Assembly: GCF_000422505.1 (NCBI RefSeq)
Contig: NZ_KE383865.1
Span: forward strand, 692,588-756,587
DNA: 64,000 bases
Direction of reading: 5' to 3'
From: Paenibacillus pinihumi DSM 23905 = JCM 16419
Lineage (GTDB): Bacteria; Bacillota; Bacilli; Paenibacillales; Paenibacillaceae
A program made the translations under genes and the position numbers. How positions within the stretch are numbered: position 1 is the first letter of the stretch; the number at the start of each line of letters is the position of its first letter. The notes below the pieces were generated by a model. That model was not told the DNA's origin and did not search any database. It worked only from the letters and a program-made list of their open reading frames with translations. Of the stretch, positions 45,151 through 54,227 are shown piece after piece.

Positions 45151-45342
45151 GTGTATTAGGGATTCAACTACATCAGTAATGCCCGAGAGACCATCAGTTA
45201 AGTTTGTGGACAGATTTTTTCCATTTAAGCATAGAAAATTAACCCGCAGCGGATAATAGTTTTGGTCGAATCGCTTCAATATTCGGTAAGTATTTAGATT
45301 GGATTGATGTTCAAAATCTCGATTAGAAAGGATTTAAAACTC

Positions 45343-46683
45343 ATGTCTCAATTATTAGATGCACAAGCACGGGAAAATGGTACAAGGTTCATGATTTACC
45401 CGCAAAATAAAAAGTTAAAGGGATTCGAACAACCTGAGGTAGTTTACATTAATTTACCTCCAGGTTCAATTCAAGTAGGCCCTGAAGATGACAGAATGTA
45501 TGTAGTCGATGCTAAGGATAAGCATGAATATCGCATTGTCGGTGAAGGGCCTCGATATAGCGGTCCTCGGTTTCCCCCGGTACAGCCAAATGAAGAAGGT
45601 CATTTTGATCATATTCATCCTGACGATCGGGCTTTTTCTTCGACAGTTATGTATGCTACTGTTAGACGAGTATTAGATATCTGGGAAGATTATTTTGGAG
45701 AAGATATTAAGTGGTTCTTTCATGAGGCCTTCAATAAATTAGAGCTTATTCCGCGAGTAGAATGGAATAATGCTCAATCAGGCAACGGGTTCCTCGAATT
45801 CGGCTTTGCGTGCAAAGAAGTAGTTGAAAGGAAGTGTGTAGAATTAGACTATAACAATCCTTATTGTGAGAATTTCGACGTTCTGGCGCATGAAATGGGA
45901 CATACAATCAAAAATTCTATTATCGGTTGGCCACAGCATCAAGAAGAAACTGAGGAGTATCATGGACATCATGAAGCGTTCGGTGACTTAATTGCAATTG
46001 TTTCTGTTATGCATTTTGATACGGTGATTGAATATTTACTTAGCCATACCAAAGGAAATCTCTTTTCCAAAAACGAACTCTCAAGGGTTGGTGAATTAGA
46101 TCAATCACATGAAATTCGTATGGCCTTTAACGATAAAAAAATGTCAGAAATTCAGCCTATATTCGATGAGAGAACAGGAAGATGGGTAAGAGAGGAGCAT
46201 GAACTGTCGAAACCATTTACTGGTGGGGCTTTTGATGTGTTAGTTGATCTATTTCAGCTTAATTTGATCGAAAAAGGACTGATTGCTAAGGAGCTTGGAG
46301 AACGCGCATATGAGACACATTTCCAACATGTAACACAAGAAGAAAAAAATAAAATTCAGCAGGAATTTGAACAATGTTATCAAGGGAAAGAAAGAGAATT
46401 TAAAGATGCATTACTTGATGCGCGTGATTATTTTGGCCGACTCATGGCAAGCGCTTGGAGAAAAACTGAACCAAATGATTTTTATTATTGGAATGTTGTG
46501 GAGAATATGATTCGTGCTGACCAAGAGCTAAGCAATGGGAAATATGAACAAACAATCCGCGATTGTTTTGTCTGGAGGGAGATCAATGCAACAGCAACGG
46601 ATCGACCGCTCCTCAACACGCATATTGTAAATGAATTAATCCATTTTCCAAATTCTGAAACAAATGAAGCCTCAACCCATTAA
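45343..46683 (+). CDS. Gluzincin-type zinc metallopeptidase-like protein
   Basis: 446 residues, no signal peptide. The zinc motif HEMGH (His183, Glu184, His187) is followed by HGHHEAFGDL with a third-ligand Glu211, the M4/gluzincin pattern. The N-terminal part has NLPPGSIQVGPEDDRMYVVD and HIHPDDRAFSSTVMYATVRR; the C-terminal half is helical and acidic, with KPFTGGAFDVLVDLFQLNLI. ATG 45343 follows AGAAAGGAT. The lack of an export signal suggests an intracellular role. It lies 420 bases upstream of the LodA-type oxidase gene in the same direction. Confidence 0.78.
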   Translation: MSQLLDAQARENGTRFMIYPQNKKLKGFEQPEVVYINLPPGSIQVGPEDDRMYVVDAKDKHEYRIVGEGPRYSGPRFPPVQPNEEGHFDHIHPDDRAFSSTVMYATVRRVLDIWEDYFGEDIKWFFHEAFNKLELIPRVEWNNAQSGNGFLEFGFACKEVVERKCVELDYNNPYCENFDVLAHEMGHTIKNSIIGWPQHQEETEEYHGHHEAFGDLIAIVSVMHFDTVIEYLLSHTKGNLFSKNELSRVGELDQSHEIRMAFNDKKMSEIQPIFDERTGRWVREEHELSKPFTGGAFDVLVDLFQLNLIEKGLIAKELGERAYETHFQHVTQEEKNKIQQEFEQCYQGKEREFKDALLDARDYFGRLMASAWRKTEPNDFYYWNVVENMIRADQELSNGKYEQTIRDCFVWREINATATDRPLLNTHIVNELIHFPNSETNEASTH

Positions 46684-46988: not shown

Positions 46989-47013
46989 GCCGCCTTAAAA
47001 TGGCGGTTTTTTT
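46989..47013 (+). terminator. Terminator before the LodA-type gene
   Basis: GCCGCC (46989-46994) pairs with GGCGGT (47002-47007) around TTAAAAT, followed by seven T. It separates the peptidase and remnant region from the oxidase operon. Confidence 0.8.
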
Positions 47014-47103
47014 AATGCATTAAATGGTAAAAAATGTATACAATTGAACTTTAATGGATAGAAATGTATTAGAGAAATCCCGAGTAGCGAAGGAGAGCGA
47101 ATA

Positions 47104-50100
47104 ATGGAAAGAAAAATAGTATCTTGTAAAATTCATCCTGGTATAGGAATTTCTAGAATCGGAAATAGTCCTGAACAATATTTTATAGGACCGGAGTCTT
47201 TGAAAGGTATTCCACAACCTGAAGGGGGTTTCAAAGACGCAGAAGGACGAATAAAACGCCAAGCTTGCCGATTCCGTATTTACGGATATGATGAGCAAGG
47301 AATACCTGTAAAGGAGATCTCACTGCAAGATGCGGATATTACTTGGAGCGTTACACTTGCCAATATCAAAGCATCCTGGCGCAAGTTTGACGGTCTTAAT
47401 CCGAATGGAGAGTGGCGTAATGATCTCAAAGGGGATGCCCGAGCACAGTTGGAAATTAAACCCGGCGAGCGGACGATAAGCGGAATCAACCAAGGTGGAG
47501 AGAATCGTTATAAATTTGAAGGTGGAAATTTTCTTGGGGTGGAAGTTCCGCTTGGTGAATTAAAGACGGATGAATCGGGTAGATTGCTGGTGCTCGGAGG
47601 GTACGGATTTTCCAGTACGACCAAAGAAAACAATCCAATTACTCACTATGCGAACAACGAATACTGGCACGATGATGTATCGGATGGTCCAGTTTCAGCT
47701 ATTGTGAAATTGAAGGCGGATGGGACTGAAATGAAAGCCTTAGACAGTTGGGTCATCGTAGCCCCTCCAAAGTACACTCCTGGTTTTGAAAACATCGTGT
47801 CTCTCTATGATGTGGCGTTAGAATCCGCTGTGAAAAAGGGATGGGCTACGGTTCCAAAGAAGCCGTCATTTACCAAGGATATTTACCCGATCTTCCGAAG
47901 GGTAATGGAATTGCAGTGGCTTAACAAAGGGGTTTTGCTTTACCATCGGATTAAAGGGGGGGATGGGAATTTTTTTGAAAATATCGATAAACTTGCTGAT
48001 AATACGTCGGAGAGTGCCGAATTGCGCAGTAAAATTATTAACCAAGTTCGAAATCCCAATCTAACCGGGGAACAAGCAATTCAGCAAGCAAATTATTCAT
48101 TCATGCCTCCGATGTCCGGTGATGGCGGAGATGCTGAGAGGAACAAGCCCGAAACATGGTTAACGGTTACCAAGACACAATATGCTTTATTGGAACAGTG
48201 GAGTCAAGGCAATTTTGAATCTGACTGGAATGGTTCCCCTACAGAGCTGCACCTAGAAGATATTCGCGTAGAAGATCAACCTGAAGTACTAGACAAGGCA
48301 GGATTAACGCTTTGCATTGGTGGTGCATTTTATCCTGGAATTGAATCTACTTGGATAATGCGCCATGAAGAGATCTATATGGAACCTTTCCGAATTAATG
48401 CCGGTAAATACCTTGCTGGTGAGTTTACCAAAAGAATGGCAGTGCCATGGCAGTCAGATTTCTATGATTGCACGGTTTTGACGGCTGAGAGCATTCCTAC
48501 CTGGTGGCCCTCACATCGACCAAATGACGTTATGACTGAGGAAACCTATAAGAAGCTGCTTCATACGGGTCCCGAAACACTTAGTGAAGAAAGTGAAAAG
48601 ACATACATCAATTCTCTATTTACCAAACGGGATGATTGGGCTCGAGGTGTTGGATCAGGCAATAATGACCACTCAGGTAATAATGACATGGTAATCAAAT
48701 GGAGTAAGCTAGGATTTATTACACCAAAACCAGGACTTCATGGAGAAACGTACTATATTGAAACTGAACGTGGTAATTTGACAGACAGTCAATTTGAGTT
48801 CGAGGAAGTAACTGAGCGTGAATACTTCTATATTTTGATGAATATTGATTCTCATCAACAATTTTTACCTCAGATCCGAAGATTAGCACAAAAATACTTG
48901 AACGAATCGTGGTTAGCACAAGATGATTCGGCATTCCCAAACATGTATCGATTCTTTGATTACACTCCAGAAGCATTTGATGAGAGAATGCAGTATATTT
49001 ATGACCGGCTCGTATTTGACTATGAAAATTATGATGTTATTAAGGATCTCGAAAAGTTTCCGCGTAAATTTATAATCGAACGAGCAAAACAATCAGCTCC
49101 TTTTAATCTTGTAGATGGAGCTTGGATACAAAATGTTGCGAAAGCAGGACCTATTGATGAAGTCAGATCCGGATTATTTTCAATTTGGGCTGACGAGGCT
49201 GGAAACGGAATCGTAGAACATAATCACTCTAACGTCTATCGCGATTATTTGCATGGACTCGGGATTTATATGCCTGAAACCAGTTCGCGAGCCTTTGTCG
49301 ACCAAAAAGATATATGGGATGAATCATTCAGTAATCCAGTCATGCAATTAGCAATTTCCCAATTCCCTAATGAGCTGCTGCCTGAGATTATTGGAATGAC
49401 CTTGTATCTTGAGTGGGAAGCGACACCAACACTATCTCAATATGTTGAATTGTTAAAGAAGAGACATATCGATCCGCATTTTTACAGTCTTCATGTTGCG
49501 ATCGATAATATTGCATCTGGGCATGGTGCAATCGCTAAAGATATAGTAAAAATATACTTGGATAAAATAAGAAGAGAAGCTGGGGAAGAAACAGTATCTC
49601 AAGTTTGGAAGAGAATTTGGAATGGGTATCTCTGCTTTCTAGTGACGGGAACAGTCGGTGATATGCTTCTCAGAATTAGAGACAAATTCGATGAGTCCCC
49701 TGAAGCAAGAAGAAAACGAATGATCGATCTAATCAAGAAAAAGGCTCCAGTTGCAAAAACAGCACATGGAAAGGCGTGGGATGGTGAATTGAATAAATCC
49801 TTCGAGAATCCAGAAGGATTGTTGGAGAAATTAATTTCACAGAATTTAATTGTTCCGGGGCAGCCGGAAAACAGCCCCTTCCTTGAACTGTTGAATTTCC
49901 AAGGTCCAATGTACAAGGTGTTCACGGAACAAGAGGTTGAAGTGATTCGCGATTACATCCTTTCGTTGAAGGATTGTCAATCATCTTCTCCGGCTCCTAC
50001 AAGAGATACGGGAACCGCTATGCGTGATCTGATCAAGATAAAGGCAGCGGCGGGAAGCTCAAGGCATCCTGAATCATCTACCCTGACTAGAAACGGTGAA

Positions 50101-50403
50101 ACCAAGACTATTAATGAGTGGTTTGCTGATCCCGAGGGAATGATGGAGGCTTTAATTCAAAGTAAATTCGTAGTGCCTAAAGACGTATCAAACAGCCAGT
50201 TGTGGAAATTGGTCAATTTGGGTGGGCCGATGGAGCCCTTCTTCAACAATGACGAACGTAACATCATCAAAGAATGGATTACTGATGGATGTCCGATACC
50301 AAAGGAATTACAGCACGCATCCTTTATGACAGCGATAATGAGCTACAATCCTGACAAACATAAAAAACTGCCTAAAGTGTGGGGATTAGGGATGGTTCAC
50401 TAG
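47104..50403 (+). CDS. LodA-type CTQ oxidase fused to a heme-oxygenase-like diiron domain and two C-terminal repeats
   Basis: 1099 residues, no signal peptide. Residues about 1-560 are LodA/GoxA-like: IHPGIGISRIGNSPEQYFIG, the Cys block LTLCIGGAFYPGIE (Cys404) and TWWPSHRPNDV (Trp467/468). That spacing fits the Cys-Trp pair that forms cysteine tryptophylquinone (LodA Cys516/Trp581). Residues about 640-870 resemble the iron-containing redox enzyme family: WADEAGNGIVEHNHSNVYRD (Glu698, His706/708), YLEWEATPT (Glu770/772), HFYSLHVAIDNIASGHG (His797, Asp801, His807). Two repeats follow (about 875-965 and 975-1090), each with a P-E-G-(L/M) block, an SQ(N/K)..VP block and a GPM..F block. LodA is about 726 residues, so the last 500 are extra. 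LodA enzymes deaminate amino acids and release H2O2. RBS AGGAGAG. Confidence 0.85.
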   Translation: MERKIVSCKIHPGIGISRIGNSPEQYFIGPESLKGIPQPEGGFKDAEGRIKRQACRFRIYGYDEQGIPVKEISLQDADITWSVTLANIKASWRKFDGLNPNGEWRNDLKGDARAQLEIKPGERTISGINQGGENRYKFEGGNFLGVEVPLGELKTDESGRLLVLGGYGFSSTTKENNPITHYANNEYWHDDVSDGPVSAIVKLKADGTEMKALDSWVIVAPPKYTPGFENIVSLYDVALESAVKKGWATVPKKPSFTKDIYPIFRRVMELQWLNKGVLLYHRIKGGDGNFFENIDKLADNTSESAELRSKIINQVRNPNLTGEQAIQQANYSFMPPMSGDGGDAERNKPETWLTVTKTQYALLEQWSQGNFESDWNGSPTELHLEDIRVEDQPEVLDKAGLTLCIGGAFYPGIESTWIMRHEEIYMEPFRINAGKYLAGEFTKRMAVPWQSDFYDCTVLTAESIPTWWPSHRPNDVMTEETYKKLLHTGPETLSEESEKTYINSLFTKRDDWARGVGSGNNDHSGNNDMVIKWSKLGFITPKPGLHGETYYIETERGNLTDSQFEFEEVTEREYFYILMNIDSHQQFLPQIRRLAQKYLNESWLAQDDSAFPNMYRFFDYTPEAFDERMQYIYDRLVFDYENYDVIKDLEKFPRKFIIERAKQSAPFNLVDGAWIQNVAKAGPIDEVRSGLFSIWADEAGNGIVEHNHSNVYRDYLHGLGIYMPETSSRAFVDQKDIWDESFSNPVMQLAISQFPNELLPEIIGMTLYLEWEATPTLSQYVELLKKRHIDPHFYSLHVAIDNIASGHGAIAKDIVKIYLDKIRREAGEETVSQVWKRIWNGYLCFLVTGTVGDMLLRIRDKFDESPEARRKRMIDLIKKKAPVAKTAHGKAWDGELNKSFENPEGLLEKLISQNLIVPGQPENSPFLELLNFQGPMYKVFTEQEVEVIRDYILSLKDCQSSSPAPTRDTGTAMRDLIKIKAAAGSSRHPESSTLTRNGETKTINEWFADPEGMMEALIQSKFVVPKDVSNSQLWKLVNLGGPMEPFFNNDERNIIKEWITDGCPIPKELQHASFMTAIMSYNPDKHKKLPKVWGLGMVH

Positions 50404-50406
50404 TCA

Positions 50407-51537
50407 ATGAAAACTAGTTATTCAGATGTTAACTTTGATGTAGTAGTAATTGGTGGAGGCCCTGCCGGGGTCTCTTCTGCTTTGCAGTTGGCCAAACGAG
50501 GGGTATCCGTTGCGTTGGTTGAACGCAGCCTTGAACAAGAGGGACGTATGGGAGAAACCATTCATCCGACCATCAAACCATACTTGCAAAACATGGGACT
50601 ATGGGAGCGCTTTTGCCTGGATCAACATTTACCTTCTTACGGAAACCGCTCTGCATGGGGGGATTGTTTACTCAAAGAAACCCAGTTTATTTTTACTCCA
50701 TATGGAACTGGTTGGCATCTGAATCGAGACAAATTTGACATGATGCTGACAGATTCAGCAAAACAGGCTGGTGTCCGCGTGTTCACAGGAAGGATAGTTC
50801 GTTTACTGCACAAATGTTCTTCCGGCAGGTGGTTGATTCAATTGAATGGAGAGTACGAGACTATGTCGGCGCGAATGGTAATAGATGCGACTGGACGAAC
50901 GAGCAAGGGGGACTCGTCATCGAGGACTCAACGAATGAGGGTGGATAATCTAATTGGTATAAGAGGTATCATGTCTATAAAACCTGGAATGCTTCGGGAC
51001 TTGTACACGTTAACGGAATCGGTGGAAGACGGATGGTGGTATTCGGCATTTGTTCCGTCTGGCCAACTGGTCATATATTTCTTCACAGATGCGGACATTG
51101 CTAAAGATAAGGGCTACTTGTCAATTGAAGGCTGGACGTCAGGCTTGCAAAAAACACTTTATACCAAACTTCGCTCTAGTTTTTGTTTGACAGGAGGAAA
51201 GTTGAAGATACGAACAGCCGCGAGTAGTTGTTTGACTAAGATTGTGGATGAAAATTGGCTGGCAGTTGGTGATGCGGCATGTGCTTTTGATCCACTCTCT
51301 TCCTTTGGTATTCAAAAAGGACTAAATATGGGTGAAAAAGCGGCATTGGCAGTCACCGATTATTTGCAGTCTGGATCCTTCTCTTTTCTCCAAAAATACG
51401 AGAATGATGTAAGAAGAAGTTATCGTGACTATCTTGTGCAATGGACGAAATATTATAGTATGGAGCAACGCTGGGGGAATTCGAAGTTTTGGGAGCGCCG
51501 TCACTACAGCGATCTTTCCAACGAAATCTTGGATTAG
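50407..51537 (+). CDS. LodB-type FAD-dependent maturation flavoprotein
   Basis: A 376-residue flavoprotein of the tryptophan-halogenase/PHBH-like group: FDVVVIGGGPAGVSSALQLA (FAD Rossmann), RMGETIHPTIKPYLQ, VIDATGRTSK, and WLAVGDAACAFDPLSSFGIQ with the GD motif. It starts three bases after the oxidase stop, so the pair is translationally linked. LodB/GoxB proteins are needed to build the quinone cofactor of their LodA/GoxA partners, which fits both sequence and position. It is not a halogenase as far as I can see, because no clear WxWxIP motif is present. Confidence 0.88.
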   Translation: MKTSYSDVNFDVVVIGGGPAGVSSALQLAKRGVSVALVERSLEQEGRMGETIHPTIKPYLQNMGLWERFCLDQHLPSYGNRSAWGDCLLKETQFIFTPYGTGWHLNRDKFDMMLTDSAKQAGVRVFTGRIVRLLHKCSSGRWLIQLNGEYETMSARMVIDATGRTSKGDSSSRTQRMRVDNLIGIRGIMSIKPGMLRDLYTLTESVEDGWWYSAFVPSGQLVIYFFTDADIAKDKGYLSIEGWTSGLQKTLYTKLRSSFCLTGGKLKIRTAASSCLTKIVDENWLAVGDAACAFDPLSSFGIQKGLNMGEKAALAVTDYLQSGSFSFLQKYENDVRRSYRDYLVQWTKYYSMEQRWGNSKFWERRHYSDLSNEILD

Positions 51538-52895: not shown

Positions 52896-54227
52896 ATGAA
52901 CCCATTAATTGGGGACGTTAATAAGAATGTATATACTGGAAGATACATTGTAACGTTCCGTCAAGATGCTATTCAAGATGGAATGAGATTACTTAATAAC
53001 TTAACCGGCGTGAAGAATATTCCGACAACATCAGATTTCATTGAAGGTAACTGGAATATTGACCAAGTCAAATCTGCAAAAGGCGCCGTTTATGAGAAAT
53101 TAGGTGTTGCTGTTATTGAGGCGGATGAACAACAAATGATGCAATTACAAATGGCTAATGAAGATGAAAAAACATCAATTATTGCTTACGAACCCGAACT
53201 GATGATGCATGCCATTGAAGATTTGAATCCAATTGAGCTGAATAATGGAAATGATGCAAATATACCTTTAAGCTACATCAAAGGCTGCCGTGATGAGATA
53301 GATAGCCTTTACCAAAGACTCGTTTCAGGTGATTTAAATATATCCACGACGGATCAACAAGTAATGGAGGTATATGAGGATACCTCAATGGAAACGTGGG
53401 GACTTCAAGCTACTAATGTTAACAATTCGCAGTATAGTGGGCGCGGGATTCGAGTTGCTGTACTGGATACCGGCTTTGATTTTTCCCATCCAGATTTTAG
53501 GGGAAGAAGAATCGAAAGCCAATCATTTGTCAGCGGTGAGACCGTTCAAGATGTACATGGTCATGGCACGCATTGCATTGGAACTGCTTGCGGTGCTCGA
53601 TCAAACACCGGACAACGATATGGGGTCGCTTATGAAAGTGAAATTTATGTTGGGAAAGTTCTCGGCAACTCTGGTAACGGTGATGATATGGGGGTCTTGG
53701 CCGGCATCGAATGGGCACTTTCTAATAACTGCCATATTATTTCAATGTCATTAGGTCCTGCAGTTCCCATCTGTACAACCACGATTGCCTACGAACAAGT
53801 TGGGCAACGTGCGCTACAGCAGGGTGGCCTAATAATCGCAGCCGCAGGTAACACTGCTAATCGAGGCCGAGGAAATTTCAGTTGTGTCGGACGTCCAGCC
53901 AACAGTAAATCGATAATGGCAGTAGCCGCACTTAATAATCGATTGCAAGCTGCTAGTTTCTCACCAAGGTCTGGAAATAATGAGGGAGGGGAGATCGATA
54001 TAGCAGCGCCGGGCGTAAGGATATTTTCTTCGTGGACACTGCCCAATCGTTATAAAATAATAGACGGAACTAGCATGGCAACACCTCATGTATCAGGTAT
54101 CGCGGCGTTGTTCGCTGAAGCATATCAAGCCCGTGGCTATCAATTATGGCAACTGCTTTCAAGTAATGCCCGTAGGCTCTCTCTTCCGAATTTGGATGTT
54201 GGTGCTGGTATCGTTCAAGCGCCTTAA
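52896..54227 (+). CDS. Subtilisin-family serine peptidase without signal peptide
   Basis: A 443-residue S8 peptidase. Residues about 15-110 resemble an I9-type propeptide (GRYIVTFRQDAIQDGMRLLN; YEKLGVAVIEADEQQMMQLQ). The catalytic triad is in RVAVLDTGFDFSHPDF (Asp191), HGHGTHCIGTACG (His223) and GTSMATPHVSGIAALF (Ser393), with oxyanion Asn in AAAGNTANRG. There is no signal peptide, so an intracellular or leaderless role is likely. RBS AGGAGGAG. The I9-like small protein gene follows after a hairpin. Confidence 0.93.
   Translation: MNPLIGDVNKNVYTGRYIVTFRQDAIQDGMRLLNNLTGVKNIPTTSDFIEGNWNIDQVKSAKGAVYEKLGVAVIEADEQQMMQLQMANEDEKTSIIAYEPELMMHAIEDLNPIELNNGNDANIPLSYIKGCRDEIDSLYQRLVSGDLNISTTDQQVMEVYEDTSMETWGLQATNVNNSQYSGRGIRVAVLDTGFDFSHPDFRGRRIESQSFVSGETVQDVHGHGTHCIGTACGARSNTGQRYGVAYESEIYVGKVLGNSGNGDDMGVLAGIEWALSNNCHIISMSLGPAVPICTTTIAYEQVGQRALQQGGLIIAAAGNTANRGRGNFSCVGRPANSKSIMAVAALNNRLQAASFSPRSGNNEGGEIDIAAPGVRIFSSWTLPNRYKIIDGTSMATPHVSGIAALFAEAYQARGYQLWQLLSSNARRLSLPNLDVGAGIVQAP

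What the first reader, a model, noticed from the sequence alone, without database searches (positions are those of the whole stretch)
47104..50403. LodA-type quinone oxidase fused to a heme-oxygenase-like diiron domain and a tandem C-terminal repeat
The first half has the LodA/GoxA hallmarks (IHPGIGISRIGNSP, Cys404 in LCIGGAFYPGIE, Trp467/468 in TWWPSHRP; spacing 63-64, LodA 65). The following about 230 residues carry the DExGNG...H...E...H..xD pattern of iron-containing redox enzymes of the heme-oxygenase-like superfamily. Known LodA and GoxA proteins stop after the quinone domain. Joining an H2O2-releasing amino-acid oxidase to a diiron oxygenase suggests one protein that oxidises a substrate twice, or uses locally produced peroxide. 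I know of no described enzyme with this architecture.
Basis: partly seen in the sequence, partly recalled or inferred. Interest (0 to 1): 0.93.

Follow-up and report, generated by a model that had tools for sequence, protein, structure and literature searches.

The report
Amine oxidase fused to diiron module
A bacterial gene encodes one protein that joins a LodA/GoxA-type domain, predicted to oxidise an amine and release hydrogen peroxide, to a second domain predicted to hold two iron atoms and likely to consume that peroxide; such joins were listed in 2015, but how they work is untested.

Summary
The fusion is real. ORF 47104-50403 (1,099 aa) has LodA_N/LodA_C, a heme-oxygenase-like domain (PF14518) and two ~100-aa repeats. 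The quinone cysteine is Cys456, not Cys404; it pairs with Trp468. Six predicted diiron ligands are invariant in 121 of 121 sequences and align one-to-one with SznF's, with a three-residue insertion before the last His. The architecture is not new: PMC4417212 (2015, Table 3) lists five LodA+pfam14518 proteins, one a 1,099-aa Paenibacillus pinihumi protein, uncharacterised. Added here: the repeats look like cytochrome c domains that kept His and Met but have no CxxCH (0 of 121); the protein ends GxGx(V/L)H (His last in 119 of 119 rows with an intact end); the diiron-repeat-tail module also exists alone; two distant LodA lineages carry it; and its diiron domain and first repeat resemble an Acinetobacter relative of DtpC, which limits H2O2 and is redundant with catalase (PMC13232832). 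A lodB-type gene lies 3 bases downstream. Most likely the diiron module consumes peroxide from the quinone site. Substrate, metals, heme and coupling are untested.

The parts
47104..50403 (+). LodA/GoxA-type CTQ domain + heme-oxygenase-like diiron domain + two repeats + GxGxVH tail, 1,099 aa, no stop inside
47090..47095 (+). AAGGAG, likely ribosome-binding site 8 bases before the ATG
   Evidence: read from the sequence
46990..47013 (+). CCGCC...GGCGG followed by T7: likely terminator of the upstream gene, so this gene likely starts its own transcript
   Evidence: read from the sequence, (no terminator scan run)
47134..47760 (+). LodA_N (PF17990), residues 11-219
   Evidence: 230.8 bits
48127..48480 (+). 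LodA_C (PF18417), residues 342-459
   Evidence: 114.8 bits
48331..48333 (+). Tyr410, at the place of GoxA H583 / LodA C448; Phe or Tyr in 118 of 120
48457..48459 (+). Asp452, at LodA D512 / GoxA D678
   Evidence: 120 of 121
48469..48471 (+). Cys456, predicted CTQ cysteine (LodA C516 / GoxA C682)
   Evidence: (120 of 121)
48505..48507 (+). Trp468, predicted CTQ tryptophan (LodA W581)
   Evidence: (121 of 121)
48787..49689 (+). heme-oxygenase-like domain, residues about 562-862; PF14518 proper at 661-839
49114..49116 (+). Asp671, aligned with SznF E189 (the fourth carboxylate)
   Evidence: 120 of 120
49195..49197 (+). Glu698, predicted iron ligand (SznF E215)
49225..49227 (+). His708, predicted iron ligand (SznF H225)
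49411..49413 (+). Glu770, predicted iron ligand (SznF E281)
49492..49494 (+). His797, predicted iron ligand (SznF H311)
49504..49506 (+). Asp801, predicted iron ligand (SznF D315); followed by a 3-residue insertion, DNxxxGH
49522..49524 (+). His807, predicted iron ligand (SznF H318)
49699..49974 (+). repeat 1, residues 866-957, with His888 and Met936 (119 of 120 rows each), no CxxCH
50005..50307 (+). repeat 2, residues 968-1068, with His988 (115 of 120) and Met1043 (114 of 120), no CxxCH
50383..50400 (+). C-terminal GLGMVH; last residue His in 119 of 119 rows with an intact end (query included)
50407..51537 (+). LodB/GoxB-type FAD maturase, 376 aa, 3 bases after the stop of the fusion gene
   Evidence: NF038171 275.7 bits, E 5.6e-82, under the equivalog cut-off of 400

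Best explanation
The gene encodes one 1,099-residue protein that joins a LodA/GoxA-type domain, whose Cys456 and Trp468 are predicted to form the quinone CTQ, to a heme-oxygenase-like domain with a full predicted diiron ligand set and a conserved two-repeat tail, and the diiron centre likely consumes the hydrogen peroxide that the quinone domain would release. Steps: (1) shown by sequence: the domains, their invariant residues, the adjacent lodB-type gene. (2) Inferred from the family: the LodB-type protein helps convert Cys456/Trp468 to CTQ, which oxidises a primary amine and hands two electrons to O2, giving H2O2. (3) Inferred: the substrate is likely neither lysine nor glycine, as the place of LodA C448 / GoxA H583 is Tyr here. 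(4) Inferred from DtpC: the diiron site reacts with that H2O2, either as a sink that protects the enzyme or as a peroxide-driven oxidant. (5) Inferred: the C-terminal GxGxVH tail folds back onto the catalytic part, most likely the diiron domain, as a lid or ligand. (6) Unknown: whether the repeats bind heme.
Against: DtpC gave no protection from acute H2O2, and its authors leave open iron binding or synthesis of a protective molecule. The catalase-type domains of other LodA fusions need not have catalase activity, as PMC4417212 itself says. The nearest solved folds are N-oxygenases, and the other characterised HDOs are biosynthetic; a lone diiron-tail gene sits in a lanthipeptide cluster with no LodA or LodB match in the fetched stretch, so the module does not need that peroxide source. 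Fusion alone does not prove coupling, and the LodA tree taken alone also fits one old fusion with four losses. LodA relatives without the module lie close by in the tree (Streptomyces). No metal geometry could be measured.
Confidence: 0.4

Rival explanations
1. Two-step oxidation of one amine substrate: the diiron domain is an N-oxygenase like RohS, HrmI or SznF and the CTQ domain oxidises the same amine or its product, making an unusual nitrogen compound.
For: The best fold matches of this part are three N-oxygenases; SznF is the best PDB sequence match of the diiron part (E 0.0069); invariant D671 aligns with E189, the place of the extra carboxylate of SznF, a 3H/4C N-oxygenase; HrmI acts on a lysine side-chain amine.
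Against: Among the 25 largest ORF families around 25 fusion loci none was in more than 5 loci; fold likeness does not give the reaction; Asp for Glu at the fourth carboxylate is untested; the sequence match to the DtpC relative is stronger (87 bits, against about 18 for SznF; different models, so only roughly comparable).
Confidence: 0.25
2. The halves are only tethered: a CTQ oxidase and an HDO working in one pathway or place, without passing peroxide, substrate or electrons.
For: Both halves exist alone.
Against: The same module in two distant LodA lineages and lodB kept beside the fusion in 20 of 25 loci suggest selection for the join.
Confidence: 0.2
3. The diiron domain acts on its own protein: the invariant C-terminal GxGxVH tail is its substrate, as CADD uses its own Tyr and Lys.
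For: The tail is at the very end in 119 of 119 rows, is kept in lone diiron-tail proteins (81 of 87 with repeat 2) and where repeat 2 is missing (P0009, P0018), and is predicted ordered in the full-length model (mean pLDDT 84 over 1091-1099) but not in the tail alone (42 over 1096-1099, 68 over 1086-1095). CADD precedent: section read.
Against: A docking lid, ligand or partner signal explains the same conservation; 4 of the 81 lone proteins end in Asn; two shorter LodA-bearing records, P0123 and P0236, lack the motif; the two models differ in alignment depth (120 and 55 rows).
Confidence: 0.08
4. The diiron domain serves CTQ formation.
For: It is in the same chain as the CTQ domain.
Against: A LodB-type maturase is next door; 53 of 54 loci with only module-free LodA have a LodB-type ORF, so CTQ proteins manage without the module; the module occurs without LodA.
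Confidence: 0.05

Closest known systems
LodA-like + pfam14518 fusions of PMC4417212 (2015), Table 3, incl. Paenibacillus pinihumi DSM 23905 H583DRAFT_01923, 1099 aa
   Same: Same two domains; same length as this protein (1,099 aa), from the only Firmicute of that survey; possibly this very gene (identity not proven: the sequences were not compared and G000 is unnamed).
   Different: The paper gives table rows and speaks of the N-terminal region for pfam14518; here that domain follows the CTQ domain. I saw no ligands, repeats, tail or function described there (abstract, passages, sections 7 and 8 read).
GoxA (6byw) and LodA (3weu, 2ymw), CTQ amino-acid oxidases
   Different: Below both NCBIfam equivalog cut-offs (406.6 of 750; 233.2 of 600); Tyr410 at the GoxA H583 / LodA C448 place; about 540 residues more.
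DtpC of Acinetobacter baumannii (PMC13232832), compared through an A. ursingii relative, L086
   Same: Diiron domain with the same Glu/His/His residues; in L086 also the DNxxxGH insertion and repeat 1 with His and Met.
   Different: L086 has no CTQ domain and no GxGxVH tail, and only one place where the repeat models match well.
SznF, RohS, HrmI (HDO N-oxygenases)
   Same: Fold; for SznF all six ligands, and D671 at E189.
   Different: Three-residue insertion between the Asp and last His against SznF; CTQ domain and repeats in place of SznF's cupin.
LodA + catalase-type (pfam00199) fusions, PMC4417212 Table 3
   Same: A LodA-like protein joined to a domain of a peroxide-reactive family.
   Different: Catalase-type domain at the N-terminus instead of a diiron fold at the C-terminus.
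Quinohemoprotein amine dehydrogenase (1jmx)
   Same: CTQ paired with cytochrome c (recalled); its gamma subunit is a weak profile hit (E 0.0062).
   Different: There separate subunits with covalent hemes (recalled); here one chain and no CxxCH.

Membership tests
LodA-like CTQ oxidases | LodA_N and LodA_C domains | tested here: met
   230.8 and 114.8 bits, cut-offs 26.3 and 25
LodA-like CTQ oxidases | Cys and Trp that align with LodA C516/W581 | tested here: met
   Cys456, Trp468:
LodA-like CTQ oxidases | lodB-like gene nearby | tested here: met
LodA-like CTQ oxidases | CTQ formed; amine oxidised; H2O2 released | not testable with these tools
   needs protein
GoxA (NF038173) or LodA (NF038172) proper | equivalog score over cut-off | tested here: not met
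   406.6 of 750; 233.2 of 600
Heme-oxygenase-like dimetal oxidases (HDO) | PF14518 / HO-like fold | tested here: met
Heme-oxygenase-like dimetal oxidases (HDO) | 3 His / 3 carboxylate ligand set on core helices | tested here: met
   as residues in an alignment, not as geometry
Heme-oxygenase-like dimetal oxidases (HDO) | HxxxDxxH spacing as in SznF | tested here: not met
   HxxxDNxxxGH, 3 residues longer; shared by L086, so likely a subfamily trait, not a loss of membership
Heme-oxygenase-like dimetal oxidases (HDO) | binds two metals | not testable with these tools
   needs protein
SznF-type 3H/4C N-oxygenase | fourth carboxylate (SznF E189) | tested here: inconclusive
   invariant D671 aligns there; Asp, not Glu
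DtpC | HDO domain with the Glu/His/His whose mutation inactivated DtpC (E143, H153, H232) | tested here: met
   E698, H708, H797 align with L086 E143, H153, H232; A. baumannii DtpC itself was not fetched
DtpC | limits H2O2 | not testable with these tools
   needs experiment
c-type cytochromes (repeats) | CxxCH | tested here: not met
   0 of 121
c-type cytochromes (repeats) | cytochrome c fold | tested here: inconclusive

The most novel reading that the evidence does not exclude
One chain is an amine-fuelled diiron oxygenase: CTQ takes two electrons from an amine, the two repeats, cytochrome c folds that kept His and Met but lack the heme-binding cysteines, hold heme without covalent bonds and carry the electrons to the diiron site, where O2 is activated without any reductase, and the invariant GxGxVH C-terminus closes or completes that site. 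It would be a single-chain analogue of quinohemoprotein amine dehydrogenase that drives an oxygenase.
Probability: 0.1. Interest if true: 0.92.

Novelty: new variant of a known kind. Interest (0 to 1): 0.62.

Why it matters
It ties two oxidative centres, the protein-made quinone CTQ and a diiron site, in one chain, with a clean hypothesis (peroxide made at one is used at the other) that a purified protein can test. It links three loose ends: fusions tabulated in 2015 for which I found no study, the unexplained redundancy of DtpC with a catalase, and a diiron subfamily (DNxxxGH) for which I met no known reaction. The invariant C-terminal His and the Cys-less cytochrome-like repeats were described in none of the texts that I saw.

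Tried and rejected
Rejected: Cys404 as the CTQ cysteine. Rejected: 'no described architecture'.

A conserved biosynthetic neighbourhood: 1,676 ORFs of 90 aa or more from 25 fusion loci, 7 window ORFs included, were clustered; of the 25 largest families, the only ones shown, none was in more than 5 loci and none held a window gene (ORFs matching the LodA/HDO/repeat/LodB models, or overlapped over 40% of their length by such ORFs, were dropped first).

Heme-bearing relatives of the repeats: one search of the tail alone returned a single protein, P0240, not examined further; phmmer of repeat 2 against PDB gave nothing under E 0.7. Foldseek of the tail gave 0 matches at E<=0.001; in the full-length VIA list only 7-863 was well covered, so the tail was folded alone.

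Contexts of lone diiron-tail genes: 8 of 8 fusion genomes matched a lone query, mostly through their fusions, with two further places in G301 (frame 1,292 aa) and G297 (725 aa); 1 of 249 (order of a Bradyrhizobium genome; the centre's own fusion); 2 of 246 (class of a Streptomyces genome: the centre's own fusion and a 255-aa remnant); 0 of 4; 1 of 338 (class of a cyanobacterium, a true lone gene); 0 of 349 (order of a Massilia genome). Kin: 2 of 295 genomes of the window's family matched, the own fusion and a 614-aa frame matched over residues 4-434 only; 6 of 295 in a Streptomyces genus search, all in frames of 1,145-1,178 aa.

Literature on the fusion: searches (the last found 0 papers); in their listings PMC4417212 was the only paper holding terms for both halves. 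The library holds open-licence papers only.

Limits: the 'lone' rows of the diiron tree may include metagenome fragments of fusions, so its 11 forced changes may be too many. Counts of 121 include the query and P0003, a shorter record of the window's own gene; counts of 120 leave P0003 out; counts of 119 also leave out P0102, whose end is cut or altered. Met1043 counts 114 of 120 by alignment column; in one of the exceptions, P0111, a Met lies next to the column.
Full report
WHAT IS THERE. The ORF 47104-50403 (+) encodes 1,099 aa without an inner stop. It has a likely ribosome-binding site AAGGAG at 47090-47095 and, just upstream, a hairpin with a T-run (46990-47013) that likely ends the previous transcript (read). 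The next gene, 50407-51537, starts 3 bases after the stop and is a LodB/GoxB-type flavin maturase (NF038171 275.7 bits, E 5.6e-82; under the equivalog cut-off of 400). Pfam finds LodA_N 11-219, LodA_C 342-459 and Haem_oxygenas_2 (PF14518) 661-839, all above cut-off, and a sub-threshold PSCyt1 at 898-930. The window lies in an unnamed 6.76-Mb genome; LodA_N matches once in it.

THE QUINONE HALF. Alignment to the solved oxidases places Asp452 and Cys456 on LodA D512 and C516 and on GoxA D678 and C682 (C516 and W581 are named in PMC4417212; the GoxA numbers are my count on the PDB chain). Trp468, the second W of WWP, falls on LodA W581. Cys456 is kept in 120 of 121 sequences, Trp467 and Trp468 in 121 of 121, Asp452 in 120 of 121; the one exception, P0029, has Asn and Ser there but keeps every diiron ligand. 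The Cys-Trp spacing is 12 here and 5 in 115 of 120 rows. At the place of GoxA H583 and LodA C448 stands Tyr410 (Phe 68, Tyr 50 of 120), so the substrate is likely neither glycine nor lysine; the role of these two residues is recalled, not taken from a call. Scores lie under both the GoxA and LodA equivalog cut-offs.

THE LAST SIX RESIDUES. The protein ends GLGMVH. Of 119 rows with an intact end (query included), 119 end in His and 112 fit GxGxxH. Among 27 fused ORFs in fetched loci, 24 have a natural end and all 24 end in His; 3 are cut (L001, L016, L047). Of 57 LodA ORFs without the module, one of them a broken piece of the L016 fusion, none ends GxGxx[HN]. Of 14 shorter LodA-bearing records in the module search 12 end GxGxxH; P0123 and P0236 do not. 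The tail is kept where repeat 2 is missing (P0009, P0018). Residues 1091-1099 have mean pLDDT 84 in the full-length model, though the linker at 1068-1072 is under 50; folded alone, 1096-1099 have 42 and 1086-1095 have 68. So the end is likely ordered only against the catalytic part. Since proteins without LodA keep it too, the diiron domain is the likely dock. The two models differ in depth, so this is suggestive only.

A MODULE THAT ALSO STANDS ALONE. A search with residues 570-1099 found 184 proteins and listed 120; of the 119 other than P0003, 105 have no LodA match; 87 of these have repeat 2 over 40 bits and 81 of the 87 end GxGxx[HN] (77 His, 4 Asn). Some may be fragments of fusions. One sure lone gene, in a cyanobacterial genome (P0122, named Cylindrospermum by its source), lies between a Nif11-domain protein and an FGE-type gene in a stretch with DurN and a LanM-type synthetase, so this module may serve peptide modification there.

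HOW OFTEN JOINED. In a LodA-domain tree of 93 rows (37 fused, 56 not) the label needs 4 changes, 4 being forced by starred branches; L022, L047 and one of two tandem fusions in L048 form a separate, distant LodA lineage. Alone this also fits one old fusion with four losses. But in the diiron-domain tree (134 rows; 14 changes, at least 11 forced, with the fragment caveat) the same three rows lie inside a starred group with Streptomyces, L011 and L013 fusions. The halves thus seem to have different histories, and the join was likely remade; a long branch (1.4) leads to that LodA lineage, so its place is less sure.

THE NEAREST CHARACTERISED RELATIVE. A 468-aa protein on an A. ursingii plasmid (L086) matches my diiron-domain model with 87 bits and repeat 1 with 41 bits, His and Met kept, and has the DNxxxGH insertion. 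Its E143, H153 and H232 carry the numbers that were mutated in A. baumannii DtpC (PMC13232832). A catalase gene lies about 2.2 kb from it on the other strand. In A. baumannii, dtpC is co-transcribed with catalase katE, either gene suffices for survival of drying, both limit H2O2, and E143A, H153A or H232A abolish protection; but DtpC gives no protection from acute H2O2, and the authors leave open iron binding, scavenging or synthesis of a protective molecule (abstract, passages, section 6 and part 1 of section 10 seen). A. baumannii DtpC itself was not compared letter by letter.

HOW IT LIKELY WORKS. CTQ oxidation of an amine would release H2O2. A domain related to a protein that keeps H2O2 low and stands in for a catalase is fused to it, and in other LodA proteins a catalase-type domain is fused on (21 rows against 5 in PMC4417212 Table 3; not necessarily active as catalase, says the paper). 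I therefore commit to a peroxide link at 0.4. The N-oxygenase rival rests on fold and on the fourth carboxylate and gets 0.25. Mere tethering gets 0.2.

WHAT IS KNOWN. PMC4417212 lists five LodA-like proteins with pfam14518, among them one of exactly 1,099 aa from Paenibacillus pinihumi, the single genome with a lodA gene among 3,658 Firmicute genomes in that survey; it says that the relevance of such domains needs experiments. In my searches I found no paper that characterises such a fusion. The HDO review PMC13108848 has no occurrence of LodA, fusion or fused in its main text (find). So the architecture is known as a table entry; its anatomy and its tie to DtpC are what this report adds.

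Noticed in passing
L100 3556-11576 (unnamed cyanobacterial genome): Lone diiron-repeat-tail gene in a stretch with DurN and LanM-type lanthipeptide genes, a Nif11-domain protein and an FGE-type enzyme; the module may modify a peptide there.
   Followed up: partly
L048 7322-17935 (Bradyrhizobium campsiandrae): Two fusion genes in tandem from two distant LodA lineages, each followed by its own LodB-type ORF.
   Followed up: partly
P0029: A fusion whose CTQ Asp and Cys are Asn and Ser while the diiron ligands, the repeat His/Met and the C-terminal His remain: a natural quinone-dead form.
   Followed up: no
P0224: A 668-aa lone diiron-repeat protein ending GPGGIH, named by its source as from the fungus Rhizophagus diaphanus; could be a true transfer or a bacterial contaminant.
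   Followed up: no
L082 6615-8918, L083 6624-8891, L085 6870-8870: Relatives of 666-767 aa with the diiron domain near the C-terminus and no GxGxVH tail, in plasmid stretches with adenylation, acyl carrier, acyl-CoA dehydrogenase, carbamoyltransferase or N-hydroxylase-type genes.
   Followed up: partly
L086 3343-9077 (Acinetobacter ursingii plasmid): A catalase gene lies about 2.2 kb from the DtpC-like gene, on the other strand.
   Followed up: no
window 45304-46683: Metallopeptidase-like ORF (weak M36 match, AHEMGHT motif) upstream of the fusion; the Paraburkholderia plasmid fusion L081 has an S53 peptidase upstream.
   Followed up: partly
window 52896-54227: Subtilase (PF00082, 161 bits) 1.4 kb downstream of the lodB-type gene.
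   Followed up: no
L024 4191-12453 (Streptomyces sp. ISL-43): A LodA gene without the module and a fusion gene lie 3 kb apart in one locus.
   Followed up: no
L013, L017, L018: Three fusion loci with no LodB-type ORF in the fetched stretches of about 21 kb.
   Followed up: no
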